Of a DNA stretch of 64,000 nucleotides, positions 26,991 through 58,405 are shown one piece after another. The stretch is from Cafeteria roenbergensis (Eukaryota; Sar; Bigyra; Bicosoecida; Cafeteriaceae): the NCBI GenBank assembly GCA_008330645.1, contig VLTN01000010.1, positions 620,001-684,000 of the forward strand, in the 5' to 3' direction. Every line of letters starts with the position of its first letter. Position 1 is the stretch's first letter. A model generated the notes under the pieces. That model saw only the letters and a program-made list of their open reading frames with translations, was not told the DNA's origin and ran no database searches. Made by a program: the position numbers and the translations under genes.

Positions 26991-29900
26991 CTACTTGCGG
27001 CGGCTGCGGCTGCCGCCGCGGCCTGGGGCCACGGGCAAGCCCGCCGCTGCCCGGCGCGCCTTGCCTCCGCCCGAGTAGAGCGAGTGGCGGCCCAGCTGGA
27101 GCCAGCGCGCGGCGAGCGCCTTGGTCGAGGAGCTGATGTTCAGCGGCTGCTTGGCCCATTCGGCCGTGGGCAGGTCGTCCTCGTCCTCGTCGTCGTCACT
27201 GACGTCCTCGCGGACGCGCTCGCCGCGGCGGCGGCGCAGGCGGGCGCGGGCCTCGCGCATCCAGTCGGTGACCATTTTCTTGGCAGCGGGCCTGAGGAAG
27301 ACGGCCCCGAAGCGGGGACCGTCCGCCTCGTCCTCGTCGTCGTCGAGGCCGCCGGTGGCGCCCTGGAGCCGGCGCTTGGCCGCGCGGGCGTCGCGCTGCT
27401 GCTGCAGGAACGGGTACGCCTGCTCCTCGAAGAAGCGCTTCCAGGCCACCTGGTCGAACTCCTCCATGTTGGGGTGAGCCTTTTCGAAGCGGTCCCCCAG
27501 CGGGTCCACGCAGGCGAGCAGCTCGGACTGGACCTCCTTGGGCTGGCGCGTGATCCAGGGGCGGACCACGTCCTTGAGCCGCAGGCGGCGCCGGGCGAGG
27601 TTGAGCCACATGCGAACGAGCGTGCGGCTGGCGGGTGACACGTCCACTGGGCCGAAGCGGCGCGTGACGTCGTCGTCGGACGAGGAGTCGGACGAGATGT
27701 CGTCGTTGACCGTGCCGAGGATCTTGGCAAACTGCGCAATCAGGTACGGCCGCGAGCGGCGCAGGGTGCGCGGCGTGAGCAGCTTGGGCAGGTTCGCCAC
27801 CAGCCACTCCCTGTTGTAGTCGAGGAACTTGTACCGGAACGTCTCCGACGTGATCTTCTGGTTCATGATGAACTGCTCGTGCGTCGCGCCGCGCATCTTC
27901 TCGAGGTCGTCGAGCTTGGGAACGCCGTCGTCGTCTTCGTCCTGCTCCAGGTCCGCGTGCCAGGCCAGCCCGGCGTTCTTCATCCGCCAGATGCCGACGC
28001 GGTTGGCGAACCAGGTGAGAAGCGAGCGCACGATCCGGCAGGCAATGAGGATGGCCGGGACGAGGAAGAGCGCGGCCGGGTCGCCGAAGAAGTTGTACCT
28101 GGCGCGGATGATGATCTCCAGGCCGATGATGAAGAAGATGATCCCCGAGGCGTGGAGGAAGTTCATGAAGTAGAACTGGGAGCTGAAGAACATCTGGTTC
28201 AGGGTCCGGAGCGACTCCTCGACGCACTCGTCCAGCTTCTCGCCCATGCCGATCCACCGCGCCTCGCGCTGGAGGAAGTGGTACTGCGTGAAGGTGAGGT
28301 AGTCGAAGATCTGCCACTGGTGGAACATCTCCAGCACGTTGAGCTGGAAGATGTCGGAGCACAGCTGGAAGGCGCTGATGATGAGCGCGAACCAGAGGTA
28401 GTACTCCATGTCCTGCTCGCGGATGTTGTACAGGTTGGGGATCTCCGTCTCCGTGCGGAAGAAGATGAAGATGGCGATGAGAATCGGCGAGTAGAGCAGC
28501 GCGACGGTCTCGTTGGCGTAGCTGCCAAAGGCGTCCAGGATGGGCTCCACCGTGGCCTGGCCCTCGATCTCGATCTCGCGCTCCTTCTCCTTGAACACGC
28601 GCGTGGCCTGCTTCTCCTCCTCGAGCAGCTCCTCCTCGAGCGTCTTGCGCCGCGTGAGCTTGATCAGCGAGCGGAAGAACTTGGCGGCGCGCCCGGCGCT
28701 GGCCATGACGAAGTTGATGATTGCCGCCAGGAACGGCCCGATGTAGACCCGCTCGGCGACGGCAAGGCCAAACTCGATGGCGAACGCGAGAAGGAAGTCC
28801 GCAAAGTCCGCCGCTCCGAGGGTGACCATGGACTGCACGATGCCCATGGCTGTGGACAGCGGGGCGACCAGCAGCGCCTCCTTGAGGATGAGGCCGAGCG
28901 TGATGTCCGCGAAGATGGCCACGACCTTGAGCGCCACGATGATGTACCAGATGTACGTGCCGTAGTCCTCCCAGAAGGAGAACTCCACGACGACGGTGAG
29001 GAAGAGCGCGAAGAGGATGGAGGTGAGCAGCATGTGGGAGCGCTTCCACAGGGTGGGCGTCCACGTGTTCTCCTCCTCGGCTGCCTGGTCGCGCGAGCGC
29101 TCGATCTCGCGCTCGCGCTTGGACACCAGCCGCGGCACGAAGATGCGCGACCCCACGAAGAGCAGGTACAGCGCCATCACGAGGAAGCACAGGCCGATGC
29201 GGCCTCGCCGGTAGCCCTGCGTGAGGCGCGGGTCCACCTTGGACTGCATGTAGTGCCCGACCACGGCGTCCAGCGGCCACACGTCGTCGGGGCCCTTGTC
29301 CGGCCACAAGAGCTTCTCGCCGTTCATCAGGATGTAGATGCCAAAGACGATGATGGCGATGGGCACGATGGCCAGGGCCACGCCGAAGAGCGGAGGCGTC
29401 GTCACGATCTTGAGGAACGACCCGTACTTGAAGCGGGCCGCCGTGGAGCGCGCGATGAGGCGGTGGCCCGCCCAGTACACGATGGTGGCCGCCAGGGCCA
29501 GGAAGCCAACGATGGTGAAGAGGAAGATAAAGGTGTTGCGCTCGAAGGCAAAGGCCACGACCAGCTCGATGTAGTTGAGGGGGTAGTACAGCACCTCGAA
29601 GACGTAGCGGTCCAGCGTGGTGTCGCGGTCGAACTCGTCGAAGACGAGGGTGGCGCCGATGATCCGCTTGACGCTCGCGTTGGTCTGGTAGTAGGAAATC
29701 TCCAGCCGGACCACGCGCGGGAAGCACAGCCGCGTGCACTCGCCCTGGATGCTGTCCGCCGCCTCGCGGTCCACGGACACGGGAATGAAGGAGTCGATGC
29801 CGAACTGCGCCTCGACCTCGTCGAGCAGCAGCCCGTTCCGGAAGAAGCCCTCGAGGTTGGTCGGGTTGCGGAGAATCTGGAACAGCTCCGTGCCGCCGCT

Positions 29901-32900
29901 GGCCTCGAACCACCGGGGGTTGACGTCCTTCTGCGGCAGGTTCTCCTCGAACTTGCAGAGGAGCCGCTGGAAGCATACGTCCGCGATGGGCGACTGGAAG
30001 AAGTCCAGGCTGTCGACCACGCGGATGTCGTCGGGGTGCGGGAAGGGCGGGAAGTCCAGCCGCTCGGGAGGCGGCTCAAAGCTCATTCCCTCGGGCGGCA
30101 GCGAGCACTCCTCGCCCTCGGTGAGAGCGAAGATGGGCACGTAGCTGTCGAAGCCCTTGCAGTTGGACAGGTACGGGAGGTAGGGCAGGAGCATGCGGCT
30201 GAAGGCGTACTCCACGTCGGGCTTGGCCGCGGTAGGGGTGGGCGTCTCCTGGAAGATTTCCCGGTACTTGTCAATGAGCTCGAGCAGCTGCGCGCCGGCC
30301 GCTGGCGGGTTCCAGTACTCGGGGCCGGGGCTGACGTCGCTCAGGTCGTCCGCAATCCAGGGCACCTGGGCAGCGTCGGCCTCCGTGCTGACGTTGAACA
30401 TGGGGAGGACGCGGCCGCGCTCCAAGTCCTGGAACCGGGGCGGCAGGTTGAGCGGCGCGCTGACCGAGTCAAGGAACTCGCGCTTGAAGATCGCCACGAA
30501 CGTGTGCTCGTCGCGCACGCGGCGGCGCTGCGCCGAGACCCAAGGCGCGAGCTCCCGCACGGGCGGCGAGTCAAGGCGGAACGAGTTGAGCGCGAGGGAC
30601 GGGCTGGCGATCTGCACGCTGCTGGTGTTGGCCAGGTGGTGCGCGACTGGCAGAAACAGCCCGTACAAGAGGTGCAGCTCCACGCGGAAGAGCACGTCCT
30701 CCAGCGCAAGGATTGAAACGTTGAGCCGCGTGCGCTTGGCCACGATGCTGCTCTCGAACCAGGGCGAGAGCTGGATTGGGTGCTTGCACGGCGACGTCTC
30801 CAGCAGGTGCTCGTTGTTGGGGGTGTTGGGGATGCGGACGCGCTCGGCGTCGCAGCGCTCGTCGGTGCAGACGGACGGAATGACGCTGATCGCGACCCGG
30901 AAGTGCTCCGAGTACACAAACTCCTCGGGAAGGTGCCGGAAGTCGAACGTGAGGTGGGCCATGCTGAGGCCGCGGAGGCTGAACCAGCGGTCGATGGGAG
31001 CCAAGTCCTCCTCCACGATGGGGCCCTCGCCCTCGAGCGTCGCGGAGCACAGGGCGAGCTCCGCGGCCTCGTACGCGGTGTCGTTGAGGCCCTCCCGGGT
31101 CCGCGAGAGCAGCAGCTGCGTCGCGGGGCCCGTGGGGGCGGGCTCCCCGCCCAGCTCGAGCACCGACACGTTGACCAGGATGTCCGTCGCGGCGGTCACG
31201 CGGCCGAGGCCAAAGTCGGGGAACGAGCAGTAGAGCCGGTACTGGGACTCGACGATGGCCTGGGTGAACACCATTGTGCCCTCCGGCACGCCCGACTCGG
31301 GCGAGATGACAGTGAAGGAGCACATGGTCGGCATCACCTCCTCGCTGCTGTTCCCGGAGCCGGACCCGGGGAGGAAGTTTCTTCCCACCACCGTGAGCAT
31401 TCGCCCCGCAGCGGCGTGCAAAGTCGCGTTCGCAAGGCCCCCTGGCGGCAGCAGGCCCGGGCGAAGCGCCCCCAGCTCGTCCTCGAAGAGCTGGGCCGCG
31501 TCAACCCAGGCCAGGCTCGGGCAGACGCGCTGCACGACGATGGTGTCGTTCCTCCAGAAGGGCACCGACGAGGACTGGTTGACCGGGTCGATGTGCCGAA
31601 GCACCTCCACCTCGTTCTCCCCGTCTGCGATAATCTCCGTGTCCCCGTTGAGCGTGTACTCGAACGTGGGGTAGTACCGCCGGTTGGGGTCCTTGTCGCA
31701 CACCTTGACGGGAGTCACCTCGCAGTCCGTCAGGCGCGTCACGCCCGACTTGGAGGTCGTCCCCGTGGGGCACTTGGTCTCCGCGGGGAAGCCCTCGGTG
31801 GTCCCCTCCGGGCAGTAGTACTGCACCGCGCACTTGTTGCGCGTCTTGAGGAAGCCCTTGGTCGCCCGCGGGCAGTAGTGGCCCGCCTCGCACACAAAGT
31901 CCACCTGCTCGTCGACCGACGTCTCCTCGAAGCAGTAGTGCCCTGCCGGACACGTGTGGTCGAACTGCTTGCCCTTGGTCGTGGCCGTGCCGCAGGCGTG
32001 CCCGTCCGGGCAGGGGGTCGAGCGCGTCAGGTTCGTCATGCGCTCCTCGCCACACACCCGCCCGGGCGGGCACGGCTCGCAGTCCGACACGTCCGTGAGT
32101 CCCGTGAACTGGCTGTAGGTGCCCTGGGGGCAGAGGCGGCAGGTGATGGAGTCGGCGAGCGAGCGGTAGGTGCCGACGCCGCAGATGGTCGGCTCGTAGG
32201 TGCCGTACCCGGCGCAGGAGTAGCCCGCCGGGCAGACGCGGCACTCCGAGTGCGCCAGCAGGGGGGCGTAGGTGCCGGGGAAGCAAAGCGTCGGCGCGAC
32301 GCTGCCCCCCGCCGACGAAAACGTGCCGAGAGGCGCCTCTGTGGGGAACGTGCTGCCGGGGTAGCAGTAGTGCCCGGGGAAGCAGGGCTGCGTGCCTGCC
32401 GCGGTCGTGGTGGCGTAGCGGCAGAACGTGCCCTCCGTGCAGGTCTGGGGCGAGCGCGCCCCCTCCAGGCCGTTGGCGGGGACCCAGTCGAGCGTGCGGT
32501 TCGAGGCCACCCCTCCCAGGCAAAAGGTTCCGGGCATGCACGCGATGGGCTTGAGAGGCGCGGCGAGAATCGCGGCAAACGTGGGCGCAGCGGGCCCAGA
32601 CACCAGCGAAGCCAGCACCGAAGCGCGCATCGCCGTCATGTCGTCGTCGATCGTGCCGTACTGCGAGCCGGCCAGCTTGCGGCCGCGCTCGGTGGGGCGG
32701 AAGCCGAGGAGCTGCCCGGCAGGCGAGAAGGGCGACGCAACGTCGTCCGTTCCCGACGTGAGCACCGCCCACTCGTCCAGCACCGAGTGCGAGGCCTGCC
32801 CCGGGGTGCCCAGCACGCCGCTCGGGAAGTAGTCCTGGTCAGGAAGCCCGTACGGCAGCAGGTCGTCGAAGCCAGGAAGGTAGTCGGCGATGTAGGGAGG

Positions 32901-35900
32901 CGCCATGGGGTCCGGAGGGACGGACAGGGACGTGTTCAGCGTCAGGGAGCCGGCCTCGCAGTAGAAGCCGGGCGGGCAAAGCAGAACCGGCTCGGGGAGT
33001 CCCGACTCGACGCACACGAAGCCCGCCGGACAAATCTCGGGCTCGAGCATTCCCCAGCGAGGGCAGATGTGCCCGGGAGGGCAGAGCGTGCAGTTGGAGC
33101 GCTTCGTGAGCGGGTTATAGGTCCCGGGATAGCACTCGAGCGGGCGGGTGTTGCCCACCTCAGGGCAGTAGTGGCCCACGGGGCAGATGAACGCCTCGGT
33201 GGGCGTCGGGCAGTAGTGGCCGGTGGGGCAGGGCCCCTGGCCCTCGGGAGTCACCGAGCCTCGCGGGCAGAAGAAGCCGCTGAAGCACCGCTGCGGGGCG
33301 CTGAAGTTGCGCGCCGTGTTGGCCGTCTCGTTCGTCGCCGCGCCTGTCCGGCAGTAGTAGCCGAGGGGGCAGGGGTGCGGCCGCTCCGCGTAAATGTGAG
33401 GCAAGTCCCGCAGCCCTGTTCTGTCGAAGCCAGGAGGCGGCATCTCCAGCAGGTGGAAGCCGTCCTCCGGGTACGGGCGCAGGCGGAACTCCCAGTCTCG
33501 CTTCGTGGCGTCGAGCGAGAGGAGCCCAAACTCCGGCAGCAGCTGCCACTCGTCCGTCTCCAGAACGTCCAGTCCGTCCGTGCCCTCGTAGATTCCCGGC
33601 AGGCGCGGAGCAAGCAGCTGCCTTGGGCCCGCAATCGCAGAGGCCTCGGCCTCGACCGCGTGCGTGCGGAACGCGACGAGTCGGAAGTCCAGCGGGTCGT
33701 CGGACTTGGTGCCTGGCGGGCAGAAGTGGCCGGCGGGGCAGGGCTTGACTGGCACCCGCAGCCCGTGGCTGTCGCACACCATCCCGGCGCGGCAAAGGCG
33801 GGGCGCGCTCAGGCCGTGGTCGGGGCAAAAGTAGCCGACCGGGCAGGGCAGGCACGCGGACTGGCCCGTCCGGGGCTGGAAGGTCCCGGGCTCGCACAGC
33901 GTGAAGTTGGTGGACCCGTAGCCTGCAGCAAAGGTGCCGTTTGGCGCCCGGAGGATGGCTCGGCCGGCGCAGTAGTGTCCCGGCGGGCAGGACCCCACGT
34001 ACTCGAAGCTCACGTGGCCTCGCGTAAAGTCCACGCCGTTGTTCGCGACGCGGAGGGCCACCGTTGTGGCGGCCACCGGCGAGACAAGCGCCCTGGACGG
34101 GGCGGGGCAGATGATGCTTGTCGGCGTGAGGAAGATGGCGCGCACGCGCAGCTCCCCGAAGGCGCACTCGAGGGACGTGGAGTTGACAAAGCCGGAGCCG
34201 AGCACGGTGATCGGCACACCGCCCTGCAGCAGGCTGCGTGCCGGCCGCGCCGCCCACACCGACTCGTCGGGCAGGTAGCGGAACGCCGGCACGCCGGGGA
34301 GACCAGCGCCGGAGGCGATGTCGACTCCAAAGTCAAACTGTTCCAGCGGCGACGGCGTGCCAAAGGCCGCTGCCGCCTCGTCCGAGCCTTGCCGCGCCTG
34401 CTCCGAGGCCGTGAAGGCGTGCCAAGCTGCAACGGCGGCGGCGTCCAGGCCGGCAGCCGCAGCAACGGCGGCCGTGCGCAGCGAGTCGGTCGCCGACGGG
34501 CCGCTCCAGTCCAGGCCGTTGGTCGTCACGCGCACGGGGACAGCGCCGGGGGCGAGCGGCGGCGTGCGGCACAGCAGCGTGCGCTCGTCCACGAAGTAGG
34601 CGGGCACCTGCGCGTCGCCGAACATGCAAGCCAGCTCTGCCGAGTTCAGGAAGCCCGACCCGCGCACCGTCACGAGGGTGCCCCCCCTCGAAGCCGGGCC
34701 CAGCTTCGGGTCGACCCTGGCCACGCGAGGCGCGGGCGTGAAGACGAAAGACGCCGCGCCCGAGCTCCAGTCGCCGCCGCCGTTGGTGCTCACCAGCACG
34801 TCCACCTCGCCCTCGCCGTCCGACGCCTCGCTGTCCGGCGTGGTGCAGGCCAAGGCGCTGTCGCTGAGCCACCGCGCTCGCACTGGCTCGCCGGACCCGA
34901 ACCTGCACCAGCACGCAGTCCCCGGGTCCTCCCGATCCGCGGAAGAGGCCGGTGCTGCTGCCCCGGCCCCGGCCGGCACGCCCTCGCGCTGGCTGAGCAG
35001 GCGAGGCCTCGAGAAGCCGCTGCCGAGCACAAGCACGGTGGAGCCCCCGGTGACGGGGCCCTCGAACGGCACCACAAGGCTGGCGCTCGCAGGCTCCTCC
35101 CACTCGAACGAGAGGCGGCTGGCGGACACCAGCGCCTCGCCCATTGCAACTTCCACGCGGGCGATCGCGGCGCCTTGCACCACGTCCCCGACCGCGCTGC
35201 CGGGCGGCGACAGGCAGGACAGCGACTCGCCCTCTGCACGGGTGGCCAGGACCGCGGCCACGCGCACCGACCCGAACACGCACTGGGCGCCCGGCCCGAA
35301 GCCGCGGCCCGAAACGGTGACAAGGGTCCCGCCTGCCACGGTGCCGCGCGGGGGCGACACGGCGTGAACCTCCGGCGGGGTGGCGAACGTCAGCCGCAGC
35401 GGCCCGGCGCCTGTTGTGCCCACAAACGTGAGTCCGTCATTCGACACGGAGAGCAGCGCCGGCCCGTAAGGGGCAGAGGCCGAGCCCACGGGGCGGACGG
35501 AGCAGCGAATGCTGGTCGGCGACACCCAAACCGCGGGGAAGGCGGAGTGGACGCGCGAGCCATCCGGTGCAGCCATCGAGACGCGGCAGGAGAGCCTTCC
35601 GCTGTTGGCGAAGCCGCTCCCAGACACCCGCACAGCCGTTGCCTGACCGAAGGGAAGCAGCCTCGGGGCGACGGACTCGGCCAAGGGAGCTTGCACCGCA
35701 TCCACGCCGAACCCGAGCGCCTCTGGCGCGTGATGGCCTTGCACCGACGTCGCGACAGACACTGTCAGACGCCTGGCTTGCTGGGAGGAGACCGAGGGAG
35801 AGCCGGTGCCAAAGGCCGGCGCCTGCTGGCCTCGGAAGGGCACCATGCAGTCCACGTACAGCAGCGGGTTCGCCTGGTCTCCGTCGACGTCTGGCTGAGC

Positions 35901-38900
35901 CGAGGGGGGCGTGCCCGGGTAGAGCGCTGGCACGACCTGGCCGTCGATGCTGCACGTTGGCCGAGCAGGCAGCGGGCCTGGCAGGGAGCCGAGGGCGGCT
36001 GCCGCGCTGCTGGCATTCCAGGCAAACGCTGCGGCCGCCGCCGCCAGCTCGGGAGCGAGACCCTCGAACGAGGAAGCGGCGGCTGCGCGCATAGCGGCGA
36101 GCTTGGACTCGCCAGCAGGCGAGGGGCTGCCTCCTTGTCCCGCAAAGCCGACGAGGGGCGAGAACAGCCGAAGCGTCAGCACCGACCCGTCGCCGCCCAT
36201 GGAAGGCGTGGCTGCCGCGCTGAGCGCTGACAGGGGCGAGGCCCAGCGCAGCGCAGCGGGAGCCGCGAACGTAAAGCCCGGCGACGGGGCGGCGGAGAAG
36301 GAGCTGCCGCCGTCGAGGCTGAGCGCAAGCTCGACCGCCACCCCCGACGAGCCAGAGTCGCTCCCGGCGGCCGCAGCCGCCGCATCGCCAGCAGCAAGCG
36401 CAAGGGCGGGCGAAACGCACCAAACATCCAACAGCTGCCTGTCTCGCGGGCGAGGCGCCCCTCCGACCCCCTCGGCCGTGACGACCATCACTGCGGGCAC
36501 AAGCGCCACGCCAAAGCGGCACACTGCATCGGCGGCCCCGACGGCGGGGCCAGAGGCCCGGATCCTGACGGCGACCCCACCGGTGGGCGAGCCCTGCTGC
36601 GGTGCGGCGGACAGAACCGCCACGCGGTCGAGCACCTGCCACGGCGCCCTCTCGCTGACAATGGACCCGTGGCCCTGGGCTGCATCGCCGTAGGCGACGG
36701 CAACCTGCCAGGCGCCAGCGCGAAGCTCAAAATCGGCGTTCTGCATCGAGCACAGCAGCTGGGAGGCCGATACCCACGTGGCCGGTACCCGGCCCTCGAG
36801 CACCAGCGAGGGCGGTGCGGCGACTGCCTGCCGTTGCTCGGCCTCGCCGGCGAACGCGGACGCAAGCTCAGGCGCGTCCTCTGCCTGCTGCGTGGCGTTG
36901 CGCGCCGGCCCGTAGAAGAGGCAGGACGCGCCCATGGCGGGCAGGAAGCCGCGGCCGAGGGCCCAGAGCGCAGCACCGGGCGCGCCGCCAGCCAACGACG
37001 ACGACGGCGACGAGGACCCGAGGCCAAGGGCGGGCGGCCACACAGACTCCAGCGTCGGTGGCTCGACGTAGGCAAAGTGCGCCGTTGCCGGGCCCCAGTC
37101 GCTTCCGTTGGTGAACGAGAGGCGAACCGGAGCCAGGTCGACCGGGCTCGGCTTGGCAGCCGCAACCGAGCCCACGGAAACTCGCGCCGGTCTCTGCGGC
37201 AACACGCACTCGAGGGTGAGGGTCCCTGCAGCGGTGTCAACAGCCACGACCTGGGCTTCGCTGGCCAGCGCGTCGCCAGCGGAGCACATGAATGGCAGCC
37301 CCGCCTCGTGCGCGGAGAGGGCCGAGCCTCCCGCCAGCACGCGGACCCGTGTCGCGGCGCTGGGCGGACCTGCGGGGGGCGTCAGCGACGAGACGACCGC
37401 CGGCTCAAGGAAGAGCACCGAGGCGTCAACGTCCGGTGACTCGCCGGCGGCCGCGCCGAGCGGATGCCAGTCCGCGCCGCCGTTCAGCGAGACCGCCACC
37501 GCCGCCCTCTCGCCCGCCGCGGCAAGCCCTGCCTGCCACGCCGGGGGCGCAGTGCAGGTCACAAGGCCGTCGTCCACAAGCGCGGCAGGCAGCTCCGCCT
37601 TGCCGACTCGGCAGCGCACGGCGGAGGCTCCCAGCAGCCCCGCTGCCACCGCAAAGCCCCTGCCTTGGAGGGCGAGCAGGGAGCCGCCGGACACTAGGGA
37701 CGCGCGCGGCAAGACGCTCGGCCTGGACGACACCGTGCCCTCGCCGGTCGGGGCGGGGTAGTAGTGGAACGCGAGGCCGGCAGCCTGCGCAAAGTCGACC
37801 CCGTTGTTCGACACGGACACGGGGACTGACACGACACCGTTGCTGGACTTGGCCAGCCGCCCCTGGTCGGAGGCCGAAGCTGCAGAAGGGCTTGAGCACT
37901 CGACCAGGAACTCGGAGATGCGCCTGGCCGGCACAGTGAACGAGCCGAACCGGCAGGCCAGCGACGCGCCTCCGGCGAAGCCGCGGCCAGACACGCGCAC
38001 GGCCGTGGCGCCGCCAAGCGGGCCGCCTGCGGGGAAGACGCTCTTGGGCTGCGCCTCCGTCTCGAGCGCAAAGGCGGCGCGGGTCCTCGAGAGCGCGCCT
38101 GCGGGGCCAGTGACCGCCACTCCCACGAGCAGCCTGCCGAAGGCGTCGGAACCCGCGGGCCCAGCCGCGTCTCGCCTGCTCAGGAGCTCCAGGCGCTGCA
38201 GCTCGACGGCGGACAGCTCGGGGACTTGGCAGGCGACAGCAGTGGAGTTGAGGAACTCGGCGGGCGCGACTCCGGCGTCTCCGAACACGCAGCCAACGGT
38301 CTCATTGGCCGTAAAGCCCGTCCCGACAACTGTCACAAGCGTTCCGCCGCGGGCCGGGCCCGACGAGGGCACCAGGGACAGAACTTCGGAGTCGGCGATG
38401 ACGCGGAGCATCGTTGGCGAACGCGCGGCCTCGGTCGTTCCCAGGGCTGTGGCTTCACCAATCGCCACCGAGACAAGGGATGGCGCGTTGGCTTCCCCAA
38501 GCGGCCACGCTCCGCCGGCAGCCACCATGCTCTGGAGCGGCGGCACGCGGCAGCGAAGCTCCTGGGGGCTCACGAACACCGCTGCGGAGAGCACGCCGCC
38601 AACGATGCAAGAGGTTGACGCGTCCTGCTCAAAGTGCGCCCCGGCCACAGCGATGGCGGCGCCGCCAGAGTCCGCGGCCACCTCTGGCCAAATCCCAGTG
38701 ACCCGCATTGCCTGGCGCACCCGAAGAGGCGCAGATCCTGCCGACAGCTCCACCCCGCCGTTCGGGGACATGAACAGTGCCCATGCTCCGGGGCGAAGGC
38801 CCTCCACGGAGCAGGCCGCCGTCGCCCGACCAGTCACGCTCGCGTTGGCTATCACAGTGGCACCTGCAACGCTCTGTCGCCCCCCCCCGTACGCAGACTC

Positions 38901-47900: not shown

Positions 47901-50900
47901 GAATGCCACGGCCACTTGGACTGGGTCTGCCAAGCTGGAGTCAGTCGGGGACGCTGGTAAGCGACACCGAGCGCGGGAGCGGGACAACACCGTGCCGGTC
48001 GTGACGCTCAGCCCGAACCTGCAAAGCGTTGAGCCAGCTGCACGGAACCCGGTCCCCACAACGAGAACAGAGCCCGAAATGCCAACTGGTGCCGAAGTCG
48101 GAAACACCTCTGTAACCGTTGGCGATTCGTAAACGAACAGCCGAGCCGACCCAGCTGCCACGATTCCGCCGGCCATTTCGACAGAGAGAAGCACGGACGT
48201 ATCCGGACGCAGCGAAGGCGGAACCACGCAGACCAACTGCGTCACAGACTGAACAATGGCTGGCACTGAAGCAGATCCAAAGCGGCAAGAAGTTGATGCC
48301 GCGTCGACGAAGCCTGACCCGTGCACCGTCACCAGAGTGCCGCCCCGCGCCGGGGCCGAGGACGGCGTGACGTGGGACACAGACGCCGCCGGCACGTACC
48401 GGAACTGCGCCGCGTCCTCCGTAAAGTCCGCGCCATTCGTCGTCACCTCGACGCTCACCGACCCCGCCGTCCCGCGGCCCGGCGACACACACTCCACCTC
48501 GCTCGCGCTCACGAAGCGACCCGCCACCAGCGTCGATCCGAAGCGGCATCCCAGCCCCGTGCTGTTCTCGAACGACGCGCCCGCCACCCGGACCACGCTC
48601 CCGCCCGCGACGCTACCCACGGCCGGAGTCAGACCGGCGACGCGCGCCACGCTCACGAACTCGAACCACGCCGACCCCGGCCCAAAGTCCACCCCGTTGT
48701 TGGACACCTGAACCTCGACGCGGCCTGCCGGAACGTCCGGCGTCTCGCAGCGGACCTCGCCCTCGCTCACCCACACCGCCGCCACCGACGCCAGGCCGAA
48801 GCGGCACTGCAGCGCGCCCCCGAACGCGAAGCCAGAGCCGCGCACGCTCACCACCGACCCGCCGCCCGCCGGCCCCCGCGCCGGAACCAGCGACTCCACG
48901 CCCTCGTCGGCCGTGACCGCGAGCGAGCCAAACGTCGACGACGACTCGGCCCCGCCGTTGCTGCTGATGCGAACCTCCCACGACGCCGGCGTGCCGTCGC
49001 TGGCGGGCCCCAGCGGCCCCACCCATGCCGGAGCCACGCACGACACCCGAGACGCCGACAGCCACACCGCCGGAGCCATCACAGCGGCCGAGCCAGCCGG
49101 CGACGAGGCCGCGCGGAACTCGCAGCCGAGCCCCACGACGTCCGACACCCCCGACCCGTGCACCGTCACCAGAGTGCCGCCCCGCGCCGGGGCCGAGGAC
49201 GGCGTGACGTGGGACACAGACGCCGCCGGCACGTACCGGAACTGCGCCGCGTCCTCCGTAAAGTCCGCGCCATTCGTCGTCACCTCGACGCTCACCGACC
49301 CCGCCGTCCCGCGGCCCGGCGACACACACTCCACCTCGCTCGCGCTCACGAAGCGACCCGCCACCAGCGTCGATCCGAAGCGGCATCCCAGCCCCGTGCT
49401 GTTCTCGAACGACGCGCCCGCCACCCGGACCACGCTCCCGCCCGCGACGCTACCCACGGCCGGAGTCAGACCGGCGACGCGCGCCACGCTCACGAACTCG
49501 AACCACGCCGACCCCGGCCCAAAGTCCACCCCGTTGTTGGACACCTGAACCTCGACGCGGCCTGCCGGAACGTCCGGCGTCTCGCAGCGAACCTCGCCCT
49601 CGCTCACCCACACCGCCGCCACCGACGCCAGGCCGAAGCGGCACTGCAGCGCGCCCCCGAACGCGAAGCCAGAGCCGCGCACGCTCACCACCGACCCGCC
49701 GCCCGCCGGCCCCCGCGCCGGAACCAGCGACTCCACGCCCTCGTCGGCCGTGACCGCGAGCGAGCCAAACGTCGACGACGACTCGGCCCCGCCGTTGCTG
49801 CTGATGCGAACCTCCCACGACGCCGGCGTGTCGTCGCTGGCGGGCCCCAGCGGCCCCACCCACGCCGGAGCCACGCACGACACCCGAGACGCCGACAGCC
49901 ACACCGCCGGAGCCATCACAGCGGCCGAGCCAGCCGGCGACGAGGCCGCGCGGAACTCGCAGCCGAGCCCCACGACGTCCGACACCCCCGACCCGTGCAC
50001 CGTCACCAGAGTGCCGCCCCGCGCCGGGGCCGAGGACGGCGTGACGTGGGACACAGACGCCGCCGGCACGTACCGGAACTGCGCCGCGTCCTCCGTAAAG
50101 TCCGCGCCATTCGTCGTCACCTCGACGCTCACCGACCCCGCCGTCCCGCGGCCCGGCGACACACACTCCACCTCGCTCGCGCTCACGAAGCGACCCGCCA
50201 CCAGCGTCGATCCGAAGCGGCATCCCAGCCCCGTGCTGTTCTCGAACGACGCGCCCGCCACCCGGACCACGCTCCCGCCCGCGACGCTACCCACGGCCGG
50301 AGTCAGACCGGCGACGCGCGCCACGCTCACGAACTCGAACCACGCCGACCCCGGCCCAAAGTCCACCCCGTTGTTGGACACCTGAACCTCGACGCGGCCT
50401 GCCGGAACGTCCGGCGTCTCGCAGCGAACCTCGCCCTCGCTCACCCACACCGCCGCCACCGACGCCAGGCCGAAGCGGCACTGCAGCGCGCCCCCGAACG
50501 CGAAGCCAGAGCCGCGCACGCTCACCACCGACCCGCCGCCCGCCGGCCCCCGCGCCGGAACCAGCGACTCCACGCCCTCGTCGGCCGTGACCGCGAGCGA
50601 GCCAAACGTCGACGACGACTCGGCCCCGCCGTTGCTGCTGATGCGAACCTCCCACGACGCCGGCGTGCCGTCGCTGGCGGGCCCCAGCGGCCCCACCCAT
50701 GCCGGAGCCACGCACGACACCCGAGACGCCGACAGCCACACCGCCGGAGCCATCACAGCGGCCGAGCCAGCCGGCGACGAGGCCGCGCGGAACTCGCAGC
50801 CGAGCCCCACGACGTCCGACACCCCCGACCCGTGCACCGTCACCAGAGTGCCGCCCCGCGCCGGGGCCGAGGACGGCGTGACGTGGGACACAGACGCCGC

Positions 50901-53900
50901 CGGCACGTACCGGAACTGCGCCGCGTCCTCCGTAAAGTCCGCGCCATTCGTCGTCACCTCGACGCTCACCGACCCCGCCGTCCCGCGGCCCGGCGACACA
51001 CACTCCACCTCGCTCGCGCTCACGAAGCGACCCGCCACCAGCGTCGATCCGAAGCGGCATCCCAGCCCCGTGCTGTTCTCGAACGACGCGCCCGCCACCC
51101 GGACCACGCTCCCGCCCGCGACGCTACCCACGGCCGGAGTCAGACCGGCGACGCGCGCCACGCTCACGAACTCGAACCACGCCGACCCCGGCCCAAAGTC
51201 CACCCCGTTGTTGGACACCTGAACCTCGACGCGGCCTGCCGGAACGTCCGGCGTCTCGCAGCGAACCTCGCCCTCGCTCACCCACACCGCCGCCACCGCC
51301 GCCAGGCCGAAGCGGCACTGCAGCGCGCCCCCGAACGCGAAGCCAGAGCCGCGCACGCTCACCACCGACCCGCCGCCCGCCGGCCCCCGCGCCGGAACCA
51401 GCGACTCCACGCCCTCGTCGGCCGTGACCGCGAGCGAGCCAAACGTCGACGACGACTCGGCCCCGCCGTTGCTGCTGATGCGAACCTCCCACGACGCCGG
51501 CGTGCCGTCGCTGGCGGGCCCCAGCGGCCCCACCCATGCCGGAGCCACGCACGACACCCGAGACGCCGACAGCCACACCGCCGGAGCCATCACAGCGGCC
51601 GAGCCAGCCGGCGACGAGGCCGCGCGGAACTCGCAGCCGAGCCCCACGACGTCCGACACCCCCGACCCGTGCACCGTCACCAGAGTGCCGCCCCGCGCCG
51701 GGGCCGAGGACGGCGTGACGTGGGACACAGACGCCGCCGGCACGTACCGGAACTGCGCCGCGTCCTCCGTAAAGTCCGCGCCATTCGTCGTCACCTCGAC
51801 GCTCACCGACCCCGCCGTCCCGCGGCCCGGCGACACACACTCCACCTCGCTCGCGCTCACGAAGCGACCCGCCACCAGCGTCGATCCGAAGCGGCATCCC
51901 AGCCCCGTGCTGTTCTCGAACGACGCGCCCGCCACCCGGACCACGCTCCCGCCCGCGACGCTACCCACGGCCGGAGTCAGACCGGCGACGCGCGCCCACG
52001 CTCACGAACTCGAACCACGCCGACCCCGGCCCAAAGTCCACCCCGTTGTTGGACACCTGAACCTCGACGCGGCCTGCCGGAACGTCCGGCGTCTCGCAGC
52101 GAACCTCGCCCTCGCTCACCCACACCGCCGCCACCGCCGCCAGGCCGAAGCGGCACTGCAGCGCGCCCCCGAACGCGAAGCCAGAGCCGCGCACGCTCAC
52201 CACCGACCCGCCGCCCGCCGGCCCCCGCGCCGGAACCAGCGACTCCACGCCCTCGTCGGCCGTGACCGCGAGCGAGCCAAACGTCGACGACGACTCGGCC
52301 CCGCCGTTGCTGCTGATGCGAACCTCCCACGACGCCGGCGTGCCGTCGCTGGCGGGCCCCAGCGGCCCCACCCACGCCGGAGCCACGCACGACACCCGAG
52401 ACGCCGACAGCCACACCGCCGGAGCCATCACAGCGGCCGAGCCAGCCGGCGACGAGGCCGCGCGGAACTCGCAGTCGAGCCCCACGACGTCCGACACCCC
52501 CGACCCGTGCACCGTCACCAGAGTGCCGCCCCGCGCCGGGGCCGAGGACGGCGTGACGTGGGACACGGACGCCGCCGGCACGTACCGGAACTGGGCCGCC
52601 TGCTCTGCAGCGACACTGGCGGGCGCTCCGCCAGCAACGGGTGGCGTCCATTCGTCTCCAGGCGACGTGCTCAAGTTGCGAGCTGGTTGTTCCCTGACTG
52701 CGAGCTCCACTGGTTCTTCGCTCCGCAAGAGCCGGTCGCCCTTGGCGCTTCCTCCCGTGTCGGAAGGCAGCTCCTCCACCGCCTCCACTTCAAACTCGAA
52801 CCACGCCGACCCCGGCCCAAAGTCCACCCCGTTGTTGGACACCTGAACCTCGACGCGGCCTGCCGGAACGTCCGGCGTCTCGCAGCGGACCTCGCCCTCG
52901 CTCACCCACACCGCCGCCACCGACGCCAGGCCGAAGCGGCACTGCAGCGCGCCCCCGAACGCGAAGCCAGAGCCGCGCACGCTCACCACCGACCCGCCGC
53001 CCGCCGGCCCCCGCGCCGGAACCAGCGACTCCACGCGCTCGTCGGCCGTGACCGTCAGCGCTCCGACTGCCGGCGTGGTGTCCGAGCCATTGGCCAGAGC
53101 AAGGTGGAGCCGAACAGCCCCAACCGGCAGCCCTGCAACGACCTGGCAAGCAAGGTGCTCTGGGGACCTCCAGTGAGCCGGTGCAGTGCCCAGAACCGAT
53201 CCGTTTGCGGAGTGAAACAGCACGGACCAGCGCTCGTCCATGGTCAGCCCTTGGCCATGCAGCACCAGGTGGGAGCCCCCGCGCATCGGAACCATCGTTG
53301 GAGAGAACGAACCCACACGGGGGGGCTCGGCCAGCCGGAGCACGGGGCCGTCCTGGCTGAAAGGAAGAACTGGCGGGTAGTCCCCAGCCGGACGAGCGTG
53401 GACCGAGTAGCGCCCAGGCCGCATCGCCTCACGCGGCCTGTCGCAAAACGCGCCTCCACTGCCGGCCATCTGGCCCTCAGAGGTCAGCAATCGACCGCCG
53501 GGCGACCCAAGCTCCTGGAACCGGCACTCCAGCGGATGGCCTGCTGCCCCCGGAAACCCGACAAGCCCGCTGAGGGCCAGGGGTGGCGCAACTTCAGCGC
53601 GGGTGAGGATGGTCTCGGGGCTCACAGTGGCGATGCTGAGCGCCTGCACGACATTCAGGCTCGCCGTCCCTGGCCTGGTCTCAACGGCAGAGAGCGCTGC
53701 GCCGAACACCAGCTGGACGGGATGCGTGCCAACACCGAGGCTCGAGGGAGCACGGCAGCGAGCACAAGTCTCGTTCATGATGCTGGCTTCCGACAGGTGC
53801 GAACCGAACTTGCATCCGACTTCGGTGGCCCTGCTGGGCAGCCTTGGCGCAGCGCAAACAACGATCGCCGGACGTTCGCCTGCCACGACGGCTGACGGCC

Positions 53901-56900
53901 GGACAGCGCCTACCTCGGGCATTGCCACCATCAGCGCTGCAGGAGGGGCTGCGGAGTGTTCCAGCCAGTCTGCGCCCCCGTTGAGCGACACCTGCAGCCC
54001 AAGGGACAGACTTGCGCCAGCCACCAGCCGGTCAGCCATCGAAGGAGCGTCACAGCTAACGAGATACGCAGTGCCGGGCGGCACGTTTGTCCATGCTTGC
54101 GGGACTCGGTAGATGGTGCCATGCACCGTGAGCATGTCCATGCCCCCGCCTCTGACGGCGCGCTGAGCGGAGACAGGGTCGGGGATGATCTTGCAGACCA
54201 CGTTCTCGCGCAGCAGCTGGTTCGACTTTCCCTGAATGGAAGCCACCAAGGAGCCTCCCAGGTGTGCGGCAAGCAACGACGTCCCTTGCACCAGCGGCCC
54301 CAGCGTGGGGCTGGCCTCGGCGGTGAGCAGCACGGACCGGGTGGAGTATGTCCCGTTGAAAACGTGGACCGCCCACTGTCCGCGCGATAGCTCGGCTGGC
54401 CGCTGGCACTCCACCAGCACTGTGGCGCTGGCCACTGCCGGAAACTTCTCAGGCAAGCTCCCTGCCTCGCCGGCGAACAACAGCGTCGCATTCGAGGACT
54501 CCCCGTTGCTGAACACGCACTGCAAGGTTGCGCTCGGGCCGGGGCTCGAGCTCTCGAGCGCCTCTAGATGCGAGCCAAAGAGCCACAGCTTGCCGGCGCT
54601 CCCAGACGGAATGACGGACGGGAACACAGACTGGAGCGACGGTCGCACGGCGCCCGGAGTCGTATCCAGAACCACCTCCACGAAGAGCGTCTGGGCCGCA
54701 GCACTGCTGTTGGGTGCGGAAGCCGAAGCTGTGATTGCGACGGTGTCAAAGCCGTCGAACATGGCCGTGCGAGTGTAGGTCAGACGGGAGAGTGCGCGGC
54801 TAACGTCCTCCGCGCTGCCCGCAAGCTGCAGCACTGCCCCAGGCGCGGCCGGGCCTGATGCCGAGAGGAGGCGAGCTTGCCCCGTGCCGGCCTCTGGCGA
54901 TGCGGCTTCGAGCGTGGATGTGGCATGCGCAAGTTGCAGAGTCACCAACAGCTGGTCGGTCGGGCTCCCAGACGAAAGCTGGCTCGCTGAAACCCCAGCG
55001 ATGAGCAGGCTGGGGCTACTGTTGCCGAACGCGAGGCGAGGAGGGTCGTTCACGGGCTCGACATCGATAACTACGATCCCGGATGCCGAGAGCGGCGGCC
55101 CCGGGTCGGCTGGGGTGACCGCCTCTGGCTGCAGGGTTGCGTCGCCAGTGGCCAGGCCGCGGTCCGCAACGACGGCTGTGAGCAGCTCGCGCACTCGCAG
55201 CCGATTGGAGTCTGGGTCGGACAGGTAGACCAGCGCTTCCAGGAGCTCGTTCAAAGCGGCCACGCTGCCCGATGCCTGCAGGGTGCGGCCTTGCGCGGCG
55301 ACGGCGGCCGCCGCACCTGGCTGCGGCGGCAGAGCCTGAAGCGCGCCATCGAATGCCGCCTCGGTGCCCGAGAAGGAGCCACCGCTTGCGGAAAGGCTCG
55401 TCAGCCCCACAGGGGGCTGCGACCGCCGAAAGAAGAGGACGCCAGCGCCGACGGAGAGGCGCAGGTCAAGGAGCTCAGAAGCGTTGCTCGGGCCCGCCCT
55501 GTCGTCTGCATCTGCAACGGAGATGCCGGGCACGGCAGAGGGCACGTCCTCGCGCGCGCTGACCGCCTGGCTTGGCAAGGACAGCACAGGAGCGTCGTTC
55601 ACAGCAGCGACCTCGAGCCGCACGGACTTGGAAGCCGCGAGGGCGCTGCCGGCACCCACGTTTCCAAGATCGTCCACCTCCACGGTGAGCGTCACAGGAC
55701 CGTACTCGTTGGCAACTGGGAAGAACCGCAGTTTCGACAGGGCCTCGCTGACCTGGGAGATCGGCCCGAGCAGTCGGAGTTGGCTGCCGGTCGCATCTGC
55801 TCCGGTCGTGTTTGCGGAGCCCTCGGCCTCGAGCCCGAGCGAGACCAGGGCGCCGACTCGGGCATCGGCCCCCGGCTGGACGCTGCCAGGGTCGAAGGCG
55901 TCGACCGGCCCTGCCCCAAGCCAAAGGGTTCCGCTCGACACGCTGGCAGCCACCTGAACGAACATGCCGGGGACGATAGAGGAATCGGGGTCGGTGACCC
56001 TGAGCCCGAGCACTGCGAGTGGCACGTCCTCCAGGGCAGGCAAGGGGCCTGGCGGAACGGGCCCTCGCACCACGGGAGCGCTGTTTGCCGTTGAGGCCAT
56101 GGCCATTAGCACCGTCCCGCCCGCGTACCCGTCAAACAGGCCCTTGAGGCCCTCCCAGTCCAGCGGCGACTCGCCGGCTTGCTTCCACTCCAAGGTGGCC
56201 ACGTGGTCCCCAGCGGGAAGCTGGAGGACAGCGTCGCCCGACACGGTCTCTCCGGATACGACGCTGCCCTCGAGGACGACGGAGGCGTCGCGGATGGGAG
56301 CGCCGTCCACAGCAAGGCGCAGAGCGACCGTGCCCCACCGCTGCCACGTTGTGGCGTCGAAGGTGGGCGTTCCGCGCCTCGTCAGGCTCATTGAAAAGGA
56401 CAGGCGCACGGCGCCTGTGCGGTGGAGCGAAAAGTGAGTGATTCCGCCGTCGACCACGCGCCACGCCGCCGGGCTGGACGCGTTGCCGGCAGGGGGGTTG
56501 GACACTGCGTAGGACCTTGCCACCGGCCTCACGTCCCCCAGCACCACGAGCGACCTGGGAGACACGAAGCCGTCGAGAAAGTCGGGCCTGGACCACCACG
56601 CCCCCACCCCAGTGCCGGTCCTTCGCCACTGCGCCCGCAGCGAATGGTTTCCTGCCGGCAGCGCCAGCTGCAGGGAACCCACCAGGCTCCCCGAGGAGAA
56701 CGCGCGGGTCACGGTGAAGAATTGGGACCCAGACTCCACCATGGGCGCGCCGTCCACGACGAGGCGGACCGCCAGCGTGTCGCGCGTCACGAGAGGGTTG
56801 GCGCTCGGAGGCGCGTCTGGCCTGACGTGCACCAGGTACAGGAACGTGGACCGGATGGCCTTGCCTGCATCGCCTCCGGTGGGCGCGATGGACACCGTTG

Positions 56901-57844
56901 ACGCCATCCCGGGGATGTCGGTCCACTGCCCAACAGTGACCAGCCGCGCGGGGCCCATCGGGGCCTCCGCCTCGGCAGACTTGAGCCCCGAGACGACGGA
57001 CAACGAGCGCGCAGATTCGAAGCCGTCCCCGAGGTCCGGGCGAGAGTGCCAGGCCCTCACGAAGGTGCCCCACTTGCGCCACTGCACCTCCACTGTGTGG
57101 TTCCCCTCCGGGAGCTGCACCACAAGGTACCCCCGGAGCTGCCTGGCGCTGGCCTCCATGGCCCCGAGCGGGCTCACGTGCGAGCCGGACGACCGGAACG
57201 GCACCCCGTTCACCCGCACGCGGCCGCCCAGAAAGTCGCCACCACCGGGCTTCGCCGCCCCGGACAAGAAGTTTCCGCCAGGCACGAAGGGCTGGTCGGC
57301 GAGCACGGACGCCGAGTACGAAACCAGCAGCGTCTGCGGCGACTCAAGCGTGAGCGCAAGGCTGAGCCCGGGGATGGTGCTCCAAGGGCCGACGGCCGCC
57401 AGAGATGCCGAGGTTGTGGGCACTGCTGACCACATCAGCTCTGCGGGTGTGGCTCGGGGCGGGGCGGAGGCAGCATTCCAGGCGGGTGGCGGTTGAGCGG
57501 GCGCGGCCATCGCCAGCTGGCCCGCTGGCCACCTTGCACGGGCACCGCGCCGGCAGCAGCAAGTGCGGGAACGACAGAGGGCGCGGTGCCGGTCGGTGGA
57601 ACCTGCGCAAGCGCCTGGCGGGCCAGCAGTGTGCGAGAGAGGCCCTGCCCGCAACAGCCGGCCGCTGCTCACCCTGCTGAGCCTCCGCAGTAGCTGCCGT
57701 GTCCAGGCCCACGAGGTCGCGACCTCGTCGTAGGAGCATGCCCGAGCCCGCCGTCGCCAAGTCTGACGCTGGGGATGCCCCGGCATGCCCCGCGGTGCCC
57801 AAGACAGCAAGCGCAGCGACAAGGGCAAGCGCTCGGCTGGCCAT
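26991..57844 (-). CDS. Giant (about 10,200-aa) secreted/membrane protein: cadherin-like, IPT/TIG, GCC2/GCC3 and multi-pass membrane domains
   Basis: Two exons: 57844-57673 and 57440-26991, with a 232-nt GTGAGC...CAG intron; an alternative in-phase CAG lies 15 bp further on. Exon 1 encodes a clear signal peptide (MASRALALVAALAVLGTAGH). Then come three similar beta-sandwich repeats (about 57400-56100, each with GNH or GDH plus a hydrophobic strand), three cadherin-like repeats (56090-54660; NSAPV, NDAPV and NDPPR starts), on the order of 60-70 IPT/TIG domains (54640-34010), a Cys-rich GCC2/GCC3 region, a Cys-containing ectodomain, about ten membrane helices and a basic/acidic tail ending SRSRRK. 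It is most likely a cell-surface or ciliary-membrane protein with a huge ectodomain. One extra base near 51995 shifts the frame; without it the two exons total exactly 10,207 codons. The single frame over 30 kb leaves no doubt that it is coding. The function is unknown. Confidence 0.93.
27950..29560 (-). other. Multi-pass membrane region of the giant protein
   Basis: About ten hydrophobic segments appear, from FIFLFTIVGFLALAATIVYW (near 29500) through PLFGVALAIVPIAIIVFGIY, GLCFLVMALYLLFVG, LLTSILFALFLTVVVEF, IWYIIVALKVVAIF, YSPILIAIFIFF and LWFALIISAFQLC, to LFLVPAILIACRIV. A charged loop of Glu/Lys/Arg (about 28545-28680) splits them into two groups. Several segments contain Asp or Glu inside the membrane (FADITLGLILKEALL), and one aromatic-rich loop is conserved-looking. 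This could be a channel, transporter or anchor. I cannot assign it to a named family. Confidence 0.75.
31680..34010 (-). other. Cys-rich GCC2/GCC3-type repeat region of the giant protein
   Basis: Repeated motifs of the form C-P-x-G-x-Y/F-C appear throughout: SCPPGHYCAG, CLPCPVGYFCPD, CPAGHFCPPG, CPLGYYCRTG, CPTGHYCP, CPVGHYCPE, CPPGHICPRWG, CPAGYSCAGYG, CPPGRVCGEE and others. This is the ephrin-receptor-like GCC2/GCC3 module, a disulfide-bonded ectodomain repeat common in large protist surface proteins. It joins the IPT stalk to the membrane-proximal ectodomain. Aromatic Y/F between the cysteines is well kept, so the fold looks intact. Confidence 0.85.
42211..42751 (-). repeat. Internal 541-bp duplication in the giant gene, copy A
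   Basis: This segment is nearly identical to 44029-44569; I count four single-base differences by eye. It encodes about 180 residues covering two IPT domains, including FVAAADTVCGFFARGQG and SGPASGGTVVEVTGSGF. The 1,818-bp offset is a multiple of three, so the frame is kept. The flanks differ sharply. Confidence 0.95.
44029..44569 (-). repeat. Internal 541-bp duplication in the giant gene, copy B
   Basis: Partner of 42211-42751, 1,818 bp away in the same orientation and frame. Both copies end at the same sequence (gggggtgtac) and diverge abruptly after it. This shows a recent segmental duplication or a gene-conversion tract separate from the 837-bp array. Confidence 0.95.
48316..52592 (-). 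repeat. 837-bp coding tandem array (triple-IPT units), about 5.1 copies
   Basis: Unit boundaries repeat exactly every 837 bp (48613, 49450, 50287, 51124, 51961). Each unit encodes 279 residues in three IPT/TIG domains, marked by VGSVAGGSVVRVAG, PSSAPARGGTLVTVHGSG and GPAGGGSVVSVRGSG. Copies differ at only a few bases, for example gtgccgtcg versus gtgtcgtcg near 49830, accgacgcc versus accgccgcc near 51295, and cagccg versus cagtcg near 52473. One changes Gly to Asp, one Ser to Ala. Identity this high means recent amplification or ongoing homogenisation. The copy number in this sequence may be understated or overstated, because short reads cannot span such an array. Confidence 0.97.
52793..53052 (-). 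repeat. Partial 837-bp array unit, separated from the array
   Basis: This 260-bp stretch matches the last third of the array unit (the IPT domain with GPAGGGSVVSVRGSGFAFGG) almost exactly, then diverges after accgt near 53053. It is separated from the main array by about 200 bp of unique sequence (52593-52792) coding a Glu/Ser-rich linker in place of one IPT domain. It marks the N-terminal edge of the amplification. Confidence 0.93.
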
Positions 57845-58405
57845 GCCCGGCCGTCTCGGAGGACCGGACGCGCGAGCAACCGATGCGCCCGCGCGTTGTG
57901 ATGGCGGGCGCGTTCCACCAAGCCCAGACAAGCCGGGACTTGAGTCCCGCATGTTGCGGCCCGCGCAGGGGAGGCGAGGCGGGTTCATTTTCGCCGCCTG
58001 CCAAGGCTCGGCGGGAACGGCGCGCTCAACCCAGCCGCGGCGCGAGAACGCCGCGTTGCAGACTTTCCAGGCGCCGACGGCACGAGCCTCCCTGTCGCGG
58101 CGGGAGGGCACTGCGTGCGCTATCAAGCCGCGTCGGGGGCAGGCGACGGGGTCGCTGCCGGCAAGACCTGCGTGCTCTGCCCTCGGGTGGTCGCTCCTGG
58201 CAACGCTGCGCTTGCTCTGCCGCCGCCAGACGCACGCGGCCACCGCCGCGCTCCCGCGAGGGCCGCAAGCTCTCCAGGCAGGCCTTCGCCTCGCGTCAGG
58301 CGCAGGTTCTCTGGGCCGCTCGCGGAGGCCCGCGTGCTGGCCTGGTCCGGACGCAGTCAGGGCCCGTCGCTAGCGGTGCTCGGCCCTTGGGCGCGCTGGC
58401 AAGCA
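57845..58405. promoter_or_regulatory. Divergent gap between the giant gene and the 58406 gene
   Basis: These 561 bp separate the giant gene ATG (57844, minus) and the ATG at 58406 (plus). Both promoters must lie here. The plus frame is open back to 58115, so part of the gap could be coding if translation starts upstream. No named promoter element was seen. Confidence 0.4.

What the first reader, a model, noticed from the sequence alone, without database searches (positions are those of the whole stretch)
26991..57844. A 10,200-residue surface protein combining cadherin-like, IPT/TIG, GCC2/GCC3 and ten-helix membrane modules
The sequence shows one gene of two exons spanning 31 kb, with a signal peptide, repeated extracellular modules and a polytopic C-terminus. 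IPT proteins with one helix (plexins, fibrocystin-like) are well known. Dozens of IPT domains on a multi-helix, channel- or transporter-like base are not something I can match to a described family. The layout suggests a mechanical tether or adhesion rod coupled to a membrane machine, possibly on a flagellum. That role is inference.
Basis: partly seen in the sequence, partly recalled or inferred. Interest (0 to 1): 0.85.

Follow-up and report, generated by a model that had tools for sequence, protein, structure and literature searches.

The report
Giant rod-shaped protist surface receptor
A marine flagellate that eats bacteria encodes a surface-type protein of about 10,200 residues, a long chain of adhesion modules on a multi-helix membrane base that matched no known family searched here, and two still longer open frames in the same genome share that base, which suggests that the base does more than hold the chain in place.

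Summary
The gene is real. On the minus strand, 57844-26991 encodes a signal peptide, an IPT/TIG rod (57 domains by my profile, 40 by Pfam), a Cys-rich GCC2/GCC3-type neck, a conserved juxtamembrane region, a multi-helix core and a charged tail: 10,206 aa by my model. Corrections: the frame changes once, through one extra G at 51997-51995 in a near-identical 837-bp tandem repeat (4 of 5 copies lack it), most simply an indel error; the core shows 11 hydrophobic segments, not ten; the cadherin-like match is below cut-off. Two paralogous frames (13,593 and 16,961 codons) keep the order IPT, neck, core, tail, with fewer IPT domains (24, 17). The core has no significant match in Pfam, PDB, viral contigs or GTDB genomes, nor to this genome's meckelin or another multi-helix GCC2/GCC3 module. 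No broad eukaryotic sequence collection was available, so 'orphan' is provisional. Best reading: an adhesion/tether receptor with a conserved membrane transducer, like apicomplexan CRMPs or polycystin-1 in layout only. A flagellar site has no support. New variant of a known kind.

The parts
57673..57844 (-). exon 1: start codon and signal peptide
   Evidence: ATG at 57844, hydrophobic N-terminus judged by eye; GTGAGC donor follows
57441..57672 (-). proposed 232-nt GT-AG intron
   Evidence: One of 38 frame-compatible donor/acceptor pairs (7 with this donor), chosen because third-position GC rises at about 57420; no transcript evidence
26991..57440 (-). exon 2, the rest of the protein, one frame break inside
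   Evidence: Stop-to-stop frames 51961-57984 and 26991-52001
51995..51997 (-). frame break: GGG where the other four repeat copies have GG
   Evidence: Motif search over the window: 1 copy GGG, 4 copies GG
48316..52594 (-). near-identical tandem array, 837-bp unit (279 aa), about 5 copies, within the IPT rod
   Evidence: Self-comparison at shift 837/838: 96-100 of 100 bases per block from 52600 to 49300, then 68 in the last block; extent computed from its mismatch positions plus one unit
56100..57440 (-). N-terminal region with about three related segments of roughly 150 aa
   Evidence: Seen by eye in the translation; Pfam E<=10: none for 56197-57399
55501..55626 (-). weak cadherin-like (Cadherin_4) match
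   Evidence: E 1.3e-4, 22.9 bits, cut-off 25.1
34023..54633 (-). IPT/TIG rod
   Evidence: 57 domains (51 + 6) by own profile, E<=0.01; Pfam TIG 40 stretches; three tandem units match plexin IPT domains in PDB, E 1.5e-10
31722..34022 (-). Cys-rich GCC2/GCC3-type (Ephrin_rec_like) neck
   Evidence: PF07699 36.7 bits, cut-off 23.1; aligned in order with both paralogs
29601..30194 (-). conserved juxtamembrane extracellular region, no Pfam match
   Evidence: Alignments with two paralogs; Pfam none for the window's copy
27972..29600 (-). membrane core, 11 predicted helices
   Evidence: Consensus hydropathy over three paralogs; 33% and 29% identity to the paralogs
26994..27971 (-). charged tail with a repeated W-[LM]-x-x-[AV]-R helix motif and acidic-serine runs
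   Evidence: Motif twice in each of three paralogs

Best explanation
It is a giant cell-surface receptor of the adhesion/tether type. The rod of Ig-like IPT domains (roughly 200 nm if each of 57 is near 4 nm, a recalled figure) reaches from the cell and binds prey, substrate, a neighbouring cell or the cell's own coat. The Cys-rich neck carries the load to a conserved juxtamembrane region and an 11-helix core, whose charged tail meets the cytoplasm. IPT number differs between paralogs and could change between strains by unequal exchange of the 837-bp repeat, while neck, core and tail are conserved; so the rod would set reach and specificity and the core would signal or gate. Shown: module order, three paralogs, differing IPT numbers, conservation of the base. 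Inferred: surface location, binding, signalling by the core.
For: Module order. Base aligned in order in three paralogs, IPT counts 57, 24, 17. Whole base 30-37% identical between paralogs, core 29-33% to the window, with invariant charged residues inside predicted helices: K225, E276, E283, R284, D416 in A4 numbering. Near-identical 837-bp array. In Cafeteria burkhardae RNA-seq, IPT-domain genes are enriched 1.62-fold (adjusted p 0.002) among genes up in stationary phase and were classed by the authors as cell adhesion (PMC7852580, passages). TIG domains of Dictyostelium TgrB1/TgrC1 are described as critical for cell-cell binding, with cytoplasmic domains that signal (PMC12324515, passage).
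Against: No localisation, ligand, transcript or phenotype for this gene. The expression result is for the IPT class, not for this gene. Both AlphaFold models failed (pLDDT 35.4 and 42.5). Loop charges fit an inside C-terminus only partly: the loop after segment 3, placed inside, is net acidic in 2 of 3 paralogs. Three sequences make invariance weak evidence. Conservation of the base could reflect assembly or trafficking. The frame break leaves a small chance that this copy is not translated whole.
Confidence: 0.53

Rival explanations
1. Mechanosensitive or ligand-gated channel: the 11-helix core conducts ions when the rod is pulled or bound, as proposed for polycystin-1-like proteins (recalled).
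For: 11 segments; invariant intramembrane charges; long extracellular tether.
Against: Pfam at E<=10 on all three copies of the base gave no channel family; the only row was DUF2914, E 0.074, in 1 of 3 (HMMER filters drop many weak matches; that Pfam holds polycystin, TRP, TMC, TMEM16, OSCA and Piezo models is recalled). PDB profile search: best E 0.74, hexosaminidase/chitobiase. No usable fold.
Confidence: 0.2
2. CRMP-type contact sensor: a member or analogue of the cysteine repeat modular proteins that couple contact to exocytosis in apicomplexans and act in mucocyst discharge in a ciliate.
For: Same layout: ephrin-receptor-like, Cys-rich repeats, multi-helix C-terminus, long cytosolic tail (PMC9815656, PMC9670195; passages).
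Against: CRMPs are reported with nine predicted helices in Toxoplasma and Plasmodium and five in Tetrahymena; here 11. No CRMP sequence could be compared here. A different GCC2/GCC3 multi-helix module in this genome (L025, L027, L029), which might be the CRMP-like one, is not detectably similar to this core.
Confidence: 0.15
3. Passive anchor: the helices only hold a giant coat or flagellar-hair component in the membrane.
For: The rod makes up most of the protein and its domain number varies.
Against: One helix would suffice; two other GCC2/GCC3 proteins of this genome show only one strong hydrophobic segment in the stretch fetched, although their frames run off that stretch (L026, L028). The base is better conserved than the rod and holds invariant charges. 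Nothing found ties it to the flagellum.
Confidence: 0.1
4. Artefact: a pseudogene, or a misassembled repeat region fused to another gene.
For: One frame break, in a near-identical repeat.
Against: 8,336 uninterrupted codons below the break; the same module order in two paralogous frames of 13,593 and 16,961 codons; a tail-to-tail Ku gene bounds the 3' side.
Confidence: 0.02

Closest known systems
Cysteine repeat modular proteins (CRMPs) of apicomplexans and ciliates
   Same: Large extracellular part with ephrin-receptor-like, Cys-rich repeats, polytopic C-terminus, long cytosolic tail
   Different: CRMPs are reported with nine or five helices and with EGF-like, Kringle or MAR modules; this protein has an IPT rod and 11 segments; sequence relationship untested
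Polycystin-1 (PKD1)
   Same: Long rod of Ig-like repeats on an 11-helix base (PKD1 features recalled)
   Different: No REJ, GPS, PLAT or PKD-channel row in the Pfam scans
Fibrocystin / PKHD1L1 and plexins
   Same: IPT/TIG arrays; three tandem units match plexin IPT domains in PDB, and the TIG_plexin model also scores
   Different: One helix in those (recalled); no G8, PbH1, Sema, PSI or RasGAP row here
Dictyostelium TgrB1/TgrC1
   Same: Protist transmembrane proteins whose TIG domains serve cell-cell binding (passage)
   Different: No giant rod, Cys-rich neck or multi-helix base (recalled)
Meckelin (TMEM67)
   Same: Cys-rich extracellular part before a multi-helix region (recalled)
   Different: The genome has its own meckelin, to which this base has no significant match

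Membership tests
IPT/TIG domain proteins (PF01833) | TIG domains above Pfam cut-off | tested here: met
   152.3, 903.3 and 283.4 bits in three pieces, cut-off 20.9
GCC2/GCC3-type (Ephrin_rec_like, PF07699) proteins | Ephrin_rec_like repeats above cut-off | tested here: met
   36.7 bits, cut-off 23.1. Weaker in the paralogs: best place 24.6 bits in C3 and 30.1 in C8; no row at E<=0.01 for L014 and L019
Cadherin-like | Cadherin-type domain above cut-off | tested here: not met
   Cadherin_4 22.9 bits, cut-off 25.1; Cadherin_5 E 0.22
Plexin | Sema, PSI and RasGAP domains | tested here: not met
   No such row in the Pfam scans of this protein
Fibrocystin/PKHD1L1 | G8 and PbH1 regions, one helix | tested here: not met
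   No such row; 11 segments
Polycystin-1 | REJ, GPS, PLAT and PKD channel domains | tested here: not met
   No such row
Polycystin-1 | 11 helices, N-out, C-in | tested here: inconclusive
   11 hydropathy peaks; loop charges agree only partly; no reliable structure
CRMP | Cys-rich/ephrin-receptor-like repeats before a polytopic C-terminus | tested here: met
   definition from PMC9815656 passages
CRMP | Nine helices | tested here: inconclusive
   11 peaks by hydropathy; nine only if segments 6 and 7 do not cross
CRMP | Sequence or fold homology of the membrane core | not testable with these tools
   No CRMP sequences held; AlphaFold models unusable
Meckelin (TMEM67) | Sequence homology to the meckelin membrane region | tested here: not met
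   No Meckelin row in Pfam at E<=10; against this genome's meckelin -3.9 bits for the best domain, E 0.032 in a one-sequence search, hhalign probability 0.5%. The one weak alignment does pair the first two helices of both

The most novel reading that the evidence does not exclude
The 11-helix core with its juxtamembrane region is the first seen example of an undescribed family of protist membrane transducers that stand under giant IPT rods of differing length and turn pulling or contact into ion flow or signalling, used by bacterivorous flagellates for prey or surface contact.
Probability: 0.25. Interest if true: 0.8.

Novelty: new variant of a known kind. Interest (0 to 1): 0.55.

Why it matters
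If the reading holds, three genes with a shared base and different rods are defined targets for asking how a small marine flagellate recognises and holds bacteria or surfaces. The base has no significant Pfam or PDB match, so it could be a new receptor or channel type. The longest paralogous frame, 16,961 codons without a stop (50.9 kb), is also remarkable for its length.

Tried and rejected
Rfam and tRNA scans of the window: 0 matches. PDB searches with the base: best E 0.87 and 0.74; with the cadherin-like region: best E 0.3. Viral contigs: 59 pattern matches, 0 confirmed; GTDB genomes: 51 pattern matches, 0 confirmed; both tools say that records near the window's own genome may be left out. 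Two AlphaFold runs with three sequences each: pLDDT 35.4 and 42.5. Foldseek with the second model: 171 matches at E<=10, 0 at E<=0.001, 50 rows seen, taken as meaningless because of the model. Meckelin, raised from a remembered resemblance, was rejected (a meckelin paper search was seen as a listing only). The other multi-helix GCC2/GCC3 module of this genome is not detectably similar to this core; whether it is a CRMP was not tested. MycE_N and DBB score above their Pfam cut-offs for one whole piece (30.5 and 24.1 bits), but no stretch passes alone and the matches lie on the TIG repeats; taken as by-products of the repeats.

Papers: six searches for IPT/GCC2/GCC3 giant or flagellar surface proteins of protists showed no description of this protein among the rows listed: 0 of 0, 2 of 2 (57), 15 of 41 (58), 12 of 133 (71), 15 of 381 (72), 6 of 6 (90). 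Two stramenopile proteome papers were searched for these terms and the passages seen held nothing relevant. A giant-protein search listed 8 of 118 papers, titin and cardiac work.

Pfam was run on 9 of the 11 paralog loci; L022 and L024 were not scanned. Of the many GCC2/GCC3 genes, downstream stretches of five were fetched.

Changes made on checking: the frames of L026 and L028 run off the stretches fetched, which weakens one argument against the passive-anchor rival; I raised that rival from 0.08 to 0.10 and lowered the best explanation from 0.55 to 0.53.

Recalled, from no call: features of polycystin-1, plexin, fibrocystin and meckelin; the contents of Pfam by family name; about 4 nm per Ig-like domain.
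Full report
What is there. The window lies in a genome of 36,303,456 bases in 167 contigs and has 64-79% GC per 2-kb block. Table 3 of the Cafeteria roenbergensis genome paper gives strain BVI as 170 contigs, 36,327,047 bp and 70.1% GC (PMC6972860, passages). I infer that this is that assembly with three contigs missing; no record name was shown. (Strain E4-10 of the same paper has since been named C. burkhardae; PMC7852580, passage.) Neighbours on the 3' side carry domains of ordinary eukaryotic genes: SUV3 helicase, Sin1, histone deacetylase and Ku. The Ku frame ends tail to tail, 430 bases from this gene.

Gene model. The minus strand has two long stop-to-stop frames, 57984-51961 and 52001-26991, the second of 8,336 codons. 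An ATG at 57844 begins, by eye, a typical signal peptide in another frame. It can be joined to the long frame by a GT-AG intron: 38 donor/acceptor pairs keep the frame, 7 of them with the GTGAGC donor at 57672. I prefer the acceptor ending at 57441, because third-position GC in the long frame rises there. The change between the two long frames is not an intron. It lies in a tandem array of a near-identical 837-bp unit, and the junction motif occurs five times in the window: four copies have GG, one has GGG at 51997-51995. An indel error in a repeat that short reads cannot place is the simplest reading; the published BVI assembly was built from PacBio reads and polished with PacBio and then Illumina reads.

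Extracellular part. Pfam TIG scores E 3.5e-45, 1.7e-279 and 4.3e-86 in three overlapping pieces, with 4, 28 and 8 stretches that pass alone. A profile seeded with 28 of this gene's own domains and iterated on the three paralogs finds 57 domains at E<=0.01; the count depends on that profile. Three tandem units of the repeat match plexin IPT domains in PDB, E 1.5e-10. Before the rod lie about three related segments without a Pfam match and a cadherin-like stretch below its cut-off. After the rod comes a Cys-rich neck with Ephrin_rec_like repeats: 36.7 bits against a cut-off of 23.1, 5 stretches at the lax limit, 2 at E<=0.1.

Membrane base. Two other loci encode relatives of the C-terminal region: C3 (frame of 13,593 codons) and C8 (16,961 codons). 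These are open frames; the first part of the C8 frame looks non-coding, so its protein may start later. A search with the C3 base returns these three only (six frames, best candidates only). Identity is 32% and 30% to the window's base and 37% between C3 and C8. Pairwise matches run in the same order in all three: last IPT domains, Cys-rich neck, base, tail. IPT counts by the same profile are 57, 24 and 17, several of the 17 being partial. Hydropathy averaged over the three gives 11 strong peaks, and a weak one (0.91) at the N-terminal edge that I do not count. Loop charges fit an outside N-terminus and inside C-terminus partly: basic after segment 1 in 3 of 3, acidic after segment 4 in 3 of 3 and after segment 8 in 2 of 3 (balanced in the third); but the large loop after segment 7 is net basic in only 2 of 3, and the loop after segment 3, placed inside, is net acidic in 2 of 3. 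If segments 6 and 7 do not cross, the number is nine. Invariant charged residues fall inside predicted helices: K225, E276, E283, R284, D416. With three sequences this is weak evidence.

Known families. Scanning the three copies of the base against Pfam at E<=10 gave one row, DUF2914 at 0.074 in one member. PDB profile search: best E 0.74. Viral contigs and GTDB genomes gave 0 confirmed relatives. The genome's own meckelin does not match significantly, although the one weak alignment pairs the first two helices of both. GCC2/GCC3-type repeats occur at 114 listed places in this genome (E<=0.1). I fetched downstream stretches of five such genes. Three (L025, L027, L029) share a different multi-helix module, with mutual BLAST E-values of about 1e-7 to 1e-10 that include Cys-rich parts. 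Two (L026, L028) show one strong hydrophobic segment followed, by eye, by coiled-coil sequence, but their frames run off the stretch. Profile comparison of the different module with this core gives a probability of 0.1%. So this genome places GCC2/GCC3 necks before at least two multi-helix modules without detectable similarity. No broad eukaryotic collection was available, so absence elsewhere in eukaryotes is not claimed. Both structure predictions failed.

Mechanism. The layout resembles CRMPs, which carry ephrin-receptor-like and EGF-like domains, nine predicted helices and long cytosolic tails and are needed for rhoptry secretion in Toxoplasma; Tetrahymena relatives are needed for mucocyst discharge (PMC9815656: passages and the first of two parts of the Discussion; PMC9670195: passages). 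Whether the cores are homologous could not be tested. IPT-domain genes of Cafeteria burkhardae, as a class, are enriched among genes up in stationary phase and were classed as cell adhesion (PMC7852580, passages). I therefore favour an adhesion/tether receptor whose conserved base passes on contact or load.

Scale. One search lists TIG matches in 43 distinct open frames by my count of its 144 rows (150 of 250 candidates scored), two of the 43 being this gene; some may be duplicates or alleles. Three loci were found to carry this membrane base.

Noticed in passing
whole genome G000: IPT/TIG domains occur in 43 distinct open frames by my count, many of several thousand codons: a large set of giant IPT genes in one flagellate.
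   Followed up: partly
C8:644478-593593 minus strand (L019-L024): A stop-free frame of 16,961 codons, paralogous to this gene at its C-terminus and Ala-rich (21.1%).
   Followed up: partly
L025, L027, L029 (C44, C2, C35): GCC2/GCC3-type proteins with another shared multi-helix module (sub-threshold DUF7630 match in two of three), not detectably similar to the window's core; possibly CRMP-like.
   Followed up: partly
L026, L028 (C25, C22): Giant GCC2/GCC3-type proteins with one strong hydrophobic segment and then charged, coiled-coil-like sequence to the end of the stretch fetched.
   Followed up: no
window 48316-52594: About five near-identical 837-bp tandem copies inside a coding region, a candidate length polymorphism between strains.
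   Followed up: partly
window 8728-20112 minus strand: A 3,795-codon open frame with a histone deacetylase domain near its C-terminal end only (residues 3317-3645).
   Followed up: no
window 18-359: A perfect 30-bp tandem repeat, 11.4 copies.
   Followed up: no
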